Below are positions 31,621 to 34,220 of a DNA stretch of 36,958 nucleotides, in pieces. A model generated the notes under the pieces. That model was not told the DNA's origin and did not search any database. It was given only the letters and a program-made list of their open reading frames with translations. Each line of letters starts with the position of its first letter. Position 1 is the stretch's first letter. A program made the position numbers and the translations under genes. This DNA is from Pseudomonadota bacterium (GTDB lineage Bacteria > Pseudomonadota > Gammaproteobacteria > Ga0077536). The DNA is taken from positions 1-36,958 of the forward strand of contig JAPOKK010000007.1 in NCBI GenBank assembly GCA_029977665.1. The letters are read 5' to 3'.

Positions 31621-32017
31621 CCCCTTCTCCCCTGCGCTCCCATCCAGATTAGAAGCGGTCTCACTAGTATTCGCGTCATCGTCGACAGCTGTTGTCGCAC
31701 ATTTCCGCCTTGCTCGTCACTCATTGACGTCCGGTCGACCACGCCCCTGTGCCTCGAACTGCACGAGAACAGCCCTCGGCACAGCCCTGAATAATGTCGA
31801 GACCGGTTCTAGAAAGACGTTGCAGATCCGAGTCGCACAGCCGCTAGACAGGATGGGCGTGCGTGACCGAGCCGGGACCGAAGCAGAGCGCGCAACGCCC
31901 GATGAGCAGGTTTCGGGGGCATCCAAGCAGCCGCGCGGCCAAGCTGCCGCCCGCGCGGTGTCTGCCTCGGCAGCGGGCGGCGGCCCCGTTCGTCGCCGGT
32001 TTTCTCCAAGACGAGGT
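31621..32017. other. 397-nt divergent intergenic region
   Basis: This stretch separates two divergent starts. It is less GC-rich than its surroundings near 31650-31810. The frame of the downstream gene is open through it from 31724, but the encoded Arg/Ala/Pro-rich sequence is not convincing as protein and has no ribosome site. I see no gene, no strong palindrome and no clear promoter pair, although both operon promoters must be here. Confidence 0.5.
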
Positions 32018-32815
32018 ATGCACCCGGTCGTGTTCAGAAAACTCCGTATCGCCGTTCTCTTCTTTGTCCTGGCCAACGTCGTCGTCGGCGCGTGGGCGAC
32101 GCGCGTACGCACGACGGGCTGGTACCGTCCGTTGTCCGTGACCATTCATGCCATCAATGGTGATGACAGTGCCGCCAGCGCCGCGTACATCGATCGCCTG
32201 CTCGCCATGGACGAAGTCCAGGTGGACGAGTTCTTCGGTGACATCGAGCGGTTCTTCACGCGCGAGGGAGGGCGTTACGCCCTTGCCGGGAATGAGCCGG
32301 TCGACATCATCTTCGCCGGCGTACGCGAAGCGCTGCCTCCAGCGCCTCCCCGGCACGGTTCGGTTCTGGCGGTCATGGCATGGAGCCTCCGCCTGCGCTT
32401 CTGGTCCTGGCGCCATGACGACTATGCTGCACTGCAGGATGGCGAAATCTTCGTCATCTATTTCGATCCCGAGCGCAGCCGGACACTGGCCCATTCGCTC
32501 GGCCTGCAGCAAGGCCTGATCGGCGTCGTCAATGCCTTTGCTGCCCCGCACATGGCAGCAGAGAACCATGTCGTCATCGCGCACGAACTCCTGCACATGG
32601 TCGGCGCGAGCGACAAGTACGACCCGGCGAGCAATGCGCCGCTGGTTCCCGATGGCCTCGCCGATCCGCATCGGGAGCCGCTCTACCCGCAGCGCCAGGC
32701 CGAGATCATGGCCGGTCGCATTGCACTCGGACCGCGCGCGCTCGAGGCGCCGCGATCGCTTGATCAGGTTGTCGTCGGCGGCGCTACGGCGCGGGAGATC
32801 GGTTGGATAGATTAA
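32018..32815 (+). CDS. membrane-anchored putative zinc metallopeptidase (HExxHxxGxxD)
   Basis: A 265-aa protein with one N-terminal membrane anchor or uncleaved signal (LRIAVLFFVLANVVVGAWA, about 9-27) and an extracytoplasmic domain. Residues 189-199 read HELLHMVGASD: an HExxH zinc motif extended to HxxGxxD. This fits the metzincin consensus with Asp instead of the third His, as in snapalysin. QAEIMAGRI further on could supply a Met-turn-like methionine. Similar uncharacterised proteins with HELLH...DKYD occur in other proteobacteria, by memory. The start at 32018 is chosen because it gives the anchor; its GAGG is very close to the ATG, so the exact start is unsure. Substrate unknown. It could be an inactive homologue, but the ligands are intact. 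Confidence 0.72.
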   Translation: MHPVVFRKLRIAVLFFVLANVVVGAWATRVRTTGWYRPLSVTIHAINGDDSAASAAYIDRLLAMDEVQVDEFFGDIERFFTREGGRYALAGNEPVDIIFAGVREALPPAPPRHGSVLAVMAWSLRLRFWSWRHDDYAALQDGEIFVIYFDPERSRTLAHSLGLQQGLIGVVNAFAAPHMAAENHVVIAHELLHMVGASDKYDPASNAPLVPDGLADPHREPLYPQRQAEIMAGRIALGPRALEAPRSLDQVVVGGATAREIGWID

Positions 32816-33344: not shown

Positions 33345-34220
33345 ATGTTGCAACGTCGCACCCATCCATCGTTCGTGCGCTACATCGACAAGAGTCGCGA
33401 ATACTACGCCGCGCACGGTTATGACAAACCCTATGCGTGGGCGCACTACGCCGATGTGCCGTTCTGCGGTTTGTCGAAGCCGCTCGCGGAATCCCGCATC
33501 GGACTGGTCACGACGGCCGATCGCGCGCCGCGCGAACAGGGGCGCGATGCGCGGCTCTACGCCGAGCCGGTGGAGCGCAGTGAACCGCTGTATACCGAAA
33601 TGTTCTGGGACCGCGACGCGACGCATACGGACGACCCGGAGTCCTTCCTGCCGCGCGCCAGCATGGCGCGGCAGCGTGATGCCGGACGCATCGGCAGCCT
33701 GAGCCCGCGGTTCTACGGCCTGCCGACCGATTACAGTCAACGCCGGACGCTCGAGCACGACGCACCTCGAATCGAGGCTTGGATGCGCGAGGATGGCGTC
33801 GAAGCGGCGGTACTCGTTGCGCTTTGACCCGTGTGTCACCAGACCGTGAGTCTGGTCGCACGACATCTGGAAAGCCGGGGGATCCCGTCGGTGGTTATCG
33901 GTTCGGCGCGCGATATCGTCGAAGAATGCGGTGTAGCGCGCTTTCTATTCGTCGATTTCCCGCTCGGCAACCCCTGTGGGAAACCCTGGGATCGCGGCAT
34001 GCAAGATGCCATCGCCTCTGCGGCGCTGGATCTCTTGGAACGCGCTTATGTCCCGCGCACCACCATCCAGCGCCCGGAGATCTGGAACCCTTCGGATGAC
34101 CTTGGCTGGCGCGACAACTTCATGCGCGTCGACTACAGCAATCGCGCGGCGCTCGCGCGCGCGGGCCAAGCGCGGCGGCGCGCACAAGCCGCGGCGAAAG
34201 CCGGGCAGTCGGACGGGTGA
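33345..34220 (+). CDS. selenoprotein of the GrdB/PrdB-like reductase family (Sec at codon 161)
   Basis: Read through the in-frame TGA at 33825-33827, this is one 291-residue protein. The ORF track splits it at that TGA, but its two ORFs (ending 33827 and starting 33831) share a frame. Before the TGA come PFCGLSKPLAESRIGLVTTA, THTDDPESFLPRA and RIGSLSPRFYGLPTD. After it come PVCHQTVSLVARHLESRGIP and FLFVDFPLGNPCGKPWD. Together they match the whole length of the glycine/sarcosine/betaine/D-proline reductase selenoprotein B superfamily. The TGA stands just before the helix leading to RGIPSVVIG, where GrdB and PrdB carry selenocysteine, and gives the redox motif U-P-V-C. A hairpin follows at the right distance. 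The ATG has AGGGGA at 7 nt. Aerobic bacterial homologues have no known substrate; a dithiol/selenothiol reductase is the inference. A single nonsense mutation is the alternative. Confidence 0.88.
33825..33862 (+). promoter_or_regulatory. candidate bacterial SECIS element after the Sec UGA
   Basis: Right after the TGA lies a hairpin with a perfect 6-bp upper stem, CCAGAC / GTCTGG, and a 5-nt loop CGTGA (33845-33849). The stem extends downward through an A-U pair, one C-C mismatch and five further pairs including two G-U, to 33832/33862. The loop starts 18 nt after the UGA and has G at its second position. Both agree with the known bacterial SECIS layout, where a small stem-loop within about 16-37 nt of the UGA is bound by SelB. 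The hairpin is inside the coding sequence, as bacterial SECIS elements must be. Confidence 0.72.

What the first reader, a model, noticed from the sequence alone, without database searches (positions are those of the whole stretch)
32018..32815. Membrane-anchored HExxHxxGxxD protein: possible uncharacterised metzincin-like peptidase
The zinc motif HELLHMVGASD with Asp as a possible third ligand resembles snapalysin-type metzincins, but the protein is short, anchored at the N-terminus and otherwise unfamiliar. A conserved proteobacterial family of this type has, to my knowledge, no assigned substrate.
Basis: partly seen in the sequence, partly recalled or inferred. Interest (0 to 1): 0.5.

Follow-up and report, generated by a model that had tools for sequence, protein, structure and literature searches.

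The report
Membrane-anchored bacterial metzincin-type zinc peptidase
A small, widely shared but unnamed bacterial protein, tethered to the inner membrane, carries the complete active-site signature of the zinc proteases that include snake-venom proteases and human ADAM 'sheddases', and it appears to be a new family of them whose target is unknown.

Summary
The ORF at 32018-32815 is real and under purifying selection (dN 0.073, dS 0.57 against its congener). HExxHxxGxxD is far beyond chance: H189, E190, H193, D199 and Y201 are identical in all 85 homologues collected, and M231 in 84 of 85. M231 sits 29-32 residues after D199 and aligns with the Met-turn of bacterial M12B/M10-type metzincins. 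AlphaFold2 is confident (pLDDT 91.8 full length, 96.2 for the domain). Every PDB match with E<=0.001 for the full-length model (49), and all 50 listed for the domain model, is an M12B metzincin (ADAM17, ADAM33, adamalysin; TM about 0.3-0.6, 9-17% identity). By sequence it belongs to no Pfam or NCBIfam family and matches no PDB chain. It is a single-copy gene in about 1 in 5 sampled Gammaproteobacteria (76/369), rare elsewhere in the phylum; in Acinetobacter baumannii it is annotated 'hypothetical protein'. No neighbour is conserved overall; one lineage places it between pepN and envC-ctpA. Best reading: a signal-anchored periplasmic metzincin with Asp as third zinc ligand, a new family-level variant of a known kind. 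Activity and substrate are untested.

The parts
32018..32815 (+). Complete gene, 265 aa, membrane-anchored metzincin-type peptidase
   Evidence: ORF; 85 homologues; dN 0.073 / dS 0.57 against the congener copy
32024..32116 (+). Residues 3-33: single long hydrophobic helix, basic at its start (FRKLR), read as an uncleaved signal anchor
   Evidence: Hydropathy peak and no lipobox in the family; helix 3-33 in the model; R10 kept in 82/85
32117..32812 (+). Residues 34-265: soluble catalytic domain, predicted periplasmic
   Evidence: AF2 pLDDT 96.2, pTM 0.92; Foldseek PDB matches to M12B metzincins, best E 1.4e-5
32363..32416 (+). Residues 116-133: helix between two sheet strands, at the place of the 'adamalysin helix' (inferred)
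   Evidence: DSSP on the model; term from PMC12237041
32546..32599 (+). Residues 177-194: active-site helix carrying HELLH
   Evidence: DSSP on the model
32582..32620 (+). Residues 189-201: zinc motif HExxHxxGAxDKY; H189, H193, D199 predicted ligands, E190 predicted catalytic base, K200 family-specific residue, Y201 possible tyrosine switch
   Evidence: H189, E190, H193, D199, Y201 85/85; K200 84/85
32702..32716 (+). Residues 229-233 (EIMAG): Met-turn candidate with M231
   Evidence: E229 85/85, M231 84/85; spacing from D199 29-32; aligned with TIMxY of bacterial metzincins by hhalign
32780..32797 (+). Residues 255-260: short C-terminal helix that closes the domain
   Evidence: DSSP on the model; T257, A258, E260 conserved

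Best explanation
The gene encodes a small zinc endopeptidase of the metzincin type. A single N-terminal helix keeps it in the inner membrane and places the catalytic domain (residues 34-265) in the periplasm. Zn2+ is held by H189, H193 and D199; E190 polarises the zinc-bound water that attacks the peptide bond; M231 forms the Met-turn under the metal; Y201 may stabilise the reaction intermediate. As a tethered, single-copy, chromosomal enzyme without prodomain or accessory domains it most likely cuts periplasmic or membrane-proximal envelope proteins (processing or quality control) rather than foreign protein. Shown here: gene, conservation, hydrophobic anchor, predicted fold. Inferred: topology, zinc binding, catalysis, and the class of substrate.
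For: Invariant HExxHxxGAxD and near-invariant Met; D-to-M spacing of 29-32; confident models; all 49 PDB matches with E<=0.001 for the full model and all 50 listed for the domain are M12B metzincins; profile alignment to bacterial reprolysin-like domains runs from HExxHxxG through the Met-turn, while a gluzincin control (PepN) aligns only over the 10 residues around HExxH; weak TIGR03296 (M6) signals in 21 of 25 members; N-terminal anchor and no lipobox; purifying selection; single copy in nearly all carriers.
Against: No biochemical data. Structural similarity is moderate (TM about 0.3-0.6, rmsd 5.7-11 A). hhalign support is weak (probability 26%). The anchor could be a cleaved signal peptide. 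No prodomain or latency mechanism is evident.
Confidence: 0.78

Rival explanations
1. It is a short, divergent member of an existing Asp-ligand metzincin family (M6 thuringilysin/immune inhibitor A, or M7 snapalysin) that the profiles fail to recognise.
For: Third ligand Asp; the M6-type motif HExGHxxGLPDLY resembles HExxHxxGAxDKY; 21 of 25 members give a sub-threshold TIGR03296 signal, best E 6e-4.
Against: Scores are far below cut-offs (11.4 bits against 110.8 for the window protein), and that match covers only the helix. PDB matches listed are M12B, not M6 or M7. No M6-type accessory domains.
Confidence: 0.15
2. A metzincin-fold protein that binds metal but is not a peptidase, for example a scaffold or inhibitor-like membrane protein.
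For: No activity data; putative HExxH families without detected activity are known (PMC3890501).
Against: The catalytic Glu, which a metal-binding scaffold would not need, is invariant in 85/85, as is Tyr201.
Confidence: 0.1
3. A secreted nutritional protease with a cleavable signal peptide.
For: The fold is closest to secreted or ectodomain metzincins.
Against: Conserved juxtamembrane segment with W35 (84/85) directly after the helix and no conserved cleavage site seen in the alignment; helix 3-33 is continuous in the model.
Confidence: 0.1

Closest known systems
M12B adamalysins/reprolysins/ADAMs (ADAM17/TACE 1bkc, ADAM33 1r55, adamalysin II 1iag/2aig)
   Same: Overall predicted fold; HExxHxxG active-site helix; helix between the sheet strands; Met-turn; membrane tether in ADAMs
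   Different: Third ligand Asp instead of His; Lys as family-specific residue; type II N-terminal anchor; no prodomain or disintegrin domain; 9-17% identity; the window protein matches no Pfam M12B model
M7 snapalysin (Streptomyces)
   Same: Small enzyme, Asp third ligand, Met-turn (PMC3890501, PMC12237041)
   Different: Snapalysin is smaller and its Met lies about ten residues after the ligand against 29-32 here; only one of 25 members has even a weak Pfam M7 match, E 0.25
M6 immune inhibitor A / thuringilysins
   Same: HExxHxxGxxD followed by x-Tyr; weak TIGR03296 signals
   Different: Match restricted to the active-site helix and far below cut-off; M6 proteins are large, secreted and multidomain (own knowledge)
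M64 igalysins (IgAse)
   Same: Asp third ligand, Tyr two residues later, Ile-Met in the Met-turn (PMC12237041)
   Different: IgAse has HExxHxxxGxxD with one extra residue, a structural zinc site and many domains
M94 / PF06262 mini-zincins (Acel_2062)
   Same: HExxHxxGxxD (PMC3890501)
   Different: Mini-zincins lack a Met-turn and almost all sequence after the third ligand; here 66 residues follow, with a near-invariant Met

Membership tests
Metzincin clan MA(M) | HExxHxxG/NxxH/D motif | tested here: met
   Ligands and Glu 85/85, Gly 84/85
Metzincin clan MA(M) | Met-turn below the zinc site | tested here: inconclusive
   M231 84/85, near-constant spacing, aligned to TIMxY in hhalign at 26% probability; position in space not measured
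Metzincin clan MA(M) | Fold: twisted sheet, backing helix, active-site helix, short C-terminal helix | tested here: met
   AF2 pLDDT 96.2; Foldseek probability 1.00 to metzincins, TM about 0.3-0.6
Metzincin clan MA(M) | Zinc-dependent peptidase activity | not testable with these tools
   Needs purified protein
M12B adamalysin/reprolysin | His as third ligand | tested here: not met
   Asp in 85/85
M12B adamalysin/reprolysin | Match to family profile | tested here: not met
   No match in the window protein at E<=10; best Reprolysin_4 E 0.0016 in one of 25 members
M6 immune inhibitor A | Match to M6 profile above cut-off | tested here: not met
   TIGR03296 11.4 bits against 110.8; PF05547 in one member, E 0.048
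M6 immune inhibitor A | Asp as third zinc ligand | tested here: met
   D199 85/85
M7 snapalysin | Match to M7 profile | tested here: not met
   PF02031 in one of 25, E 0.25; NF033628 in one, E 0.14
M94 mini-zincin | No Met-turn; chain ends just after third ligand | tested here: not met
   66 residues follow D199 with near-invariant M231

The most novel reading that the evidence does not exclude
A new metzincin family, combining an adamalysin-like fold, Asp as third ligand, the signature HExxHxxGAxDKY...EIM and an inner-membrane anchor, that acts as a bacterial counterpart of a sheddase: it cuts a specific periplasmic or membrane-proximal envelope protein, possibly in the pathway of EnvC (divisome amidase activator) and CtpA, next to whose genes it lies in one lineage.
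Probability: 0.15. Interest if true: 0.65.

Novelty: new variant of a known kind. Interest (0 to 1): 0.42.

Why it matters
A single-copy, strongly conserved envelope peptidase present in roughly a fifth of sampled Gammaproteobacteria, including Acinetobacter baumannii, has no family model in Pfam or NCBIfam and no known substrate. If active it adds a family-level branch to the metzincins and a new player in periplasmic proteolysis, and it can be tested with a single point mutant.

Tried and rejected
Sequence searches of the PDB with the protein and with two family profiles found nothing. A 'conserved neighbour' in 13 loci turned out to be the antisense reading frame of the gene itself. A search for shared neighbours in about 80 loci found none in general, only promiscuous ABC transporters, GGDEF-type proteins and a lineage-specific pepN / envC / ctpA arrangement. 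Gluzincin membership was rejected: the PepN control aligns only at HExxH. A hit list in 'plasmids' consisted of four A. baumannii records that are megabase-sized (1.0-4.1 Mb) and probably mislabelled chromosomes. Only two M6 loci were found for a family comparison, too few for a profile. Paper searches found no description of this family in the held library. Presence outside the phylum was not tested.

Full report
Observation. The ORF 32018-32815 (+) encodes 265 residues and contains HELLHMVGASDKYD. This is the only HExxHxxGxx[DH] in the six frames of the window; a shuffled protein of this composition would carry HExxHxxGxxD with a probability of about 1e-4. Against the copy of its congener (87% identical) the differences fall 25, 19 and 76 on codon positions 1, 2 and 3, with dN 0.073 and dS 0.57, so the gene is under purifying selection.

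Family. Searches of relatives, class and phylum gave matches in 19 of 96, 76 of 369 and 5 of 399 genomes, nearly always one copy per genome. Named carriers include Woeseia, Neptuniibacter, Azonexus hydrophilus and Acinetobacter brisouii and Acinetobacter baumannii, where it lies beside topA and is annotated 'hypothetical protein'. In 85 homologues H189, E190, H193, A197, D199, Y201, R127, S160, P211, G213, Q225 and E229 are invariant, and G196, K200 and M231 are kept in 84. A few database matches are partial (G219, G389, G120).

Known families. The window protein matches no Pfam model at E<=10 and only one NCBIfam model, M6 domain TIGR03296, at 11.4 bits against a cut-off of 110.8. Scanning 25 members gave only weak hits; those that concern peptidases point to metzincins: TIGR03296 in 21, Reprolysin models in a few, M57, M6 and M7 in one or two. 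Profile searches of the PDB by sequence found nothing.

Fold. AlphaFold2 gave pLDDT 91.8 for the full protein and 96.2, pTM 0.92, for residues 34-265 with 76 sequences. TM-scores are about 0.3-0.6 and identities 9-17%, so this is shared fold and active site, not close kinship. The order of elements (strand, backing helix, strand, extra helix, strands, active-site helix, loop-rich C-terminal part, short terminal helix) fits the description of metzincins, including an 'adamalysin helix', given in PMC12237041; assigning the helix 116-133 to it is my inference.

Met-turn. The family has a near-invariant E[IVL]M 29-32 residues after D199. A profile-profile alignment with bacterial reprolysin-like domains, made without any instruction about this, aligned that Met with the Met of TIMxY, while a gluzincin control (PepN) aligned only the 10 residues around HExxH. 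The hhalign probability is only 26%, so this supports but does not prove the Met-turn. The tyrosine two residues after the third ligand matches the position of the tyrosine in IgAse (Y552 after D550).

Membrane anchor. The first 33 residues form one hydrophobic helix with basic residues at its start, with no lipobox in any homologue. With W35 conserved directly after the helix, an uncleaved type II anchor with the domain in the periplasm is the most economical reading; topology is inferred.

Context. No neighbour is conserved in general. In eight loci pepN lies divergently next to the gene; in five or fewer of these an envC-like M23 gene and ctpA follow it on the same strand, and in one more ctpA alone. 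These are peptidase genes, two of them of the cell envelope, which is a hint, not evidence, of an envelope role. In the window the neighbours are a metabolic cluster on the other strand (hydroxyacid dehydrogenase, MmgE/PrpD, CMD, metallo-beta-lactamase fold) and, downstream, a PrdB-like gene and a GGDEF protein.

Verdict. A real, conserved, probably active membrane-anchored metzincin; by sequence a family not modelled in Pfam or NCBIfam; new variant of a known kind. Shown: gene, conservation, anchor hydrophobicity, predicted fold. Inferred: zinc, catalysis, topology, substrate class.

Noticed in passing
window 33825-33857 (+), within about 33348-34220: A PrdB-like (D-proline/glycine reductase family) protein is interrupted by an in-frame TGA in the context VLVAL-U-PVCHQT (UxxC), followed at once by a strong hairpin (-18.4 kcal/mol, z -2.0), a candidate bacterial SECIS. 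NCBIfam PrdB matches at E 9e-17, below its cut-off, and the genome has a tRNA-Sec match above the gathering score. Probable selenoprotein.
   Followed up: partly
L044, L046, L116, L121, L127, L130, L132, L133: The peptidase gene lies divergently next to pepN, in five of these loci (L044, L127, L130, L132, L133) also upstream of an envC-like M23 gene and ctpA (S41) on the same strand, and in L046 upstream of ctpA alone.
   Followed up: partly
L095:2711-3175 and relatives in L041, L083, L085, L090, L091, L112: A conserved small protein of about 120-150 aa without a Pfam match (possibly receiver-like, 'LLLSIVELGGYPNFAPVYTRLGCQVILET...') lies in the neighbourhood of the peptidase gene in seven loci, on either side.
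   Followed up: no
window 31818-32017 against the same stretch in L002: Between congeners the 200 bases upstream of the gene are only 33% identical in ungapped register, yet the 14-15 bases around the ATG (GACGAGGTATGCACC) are identical.
   Followed up: no
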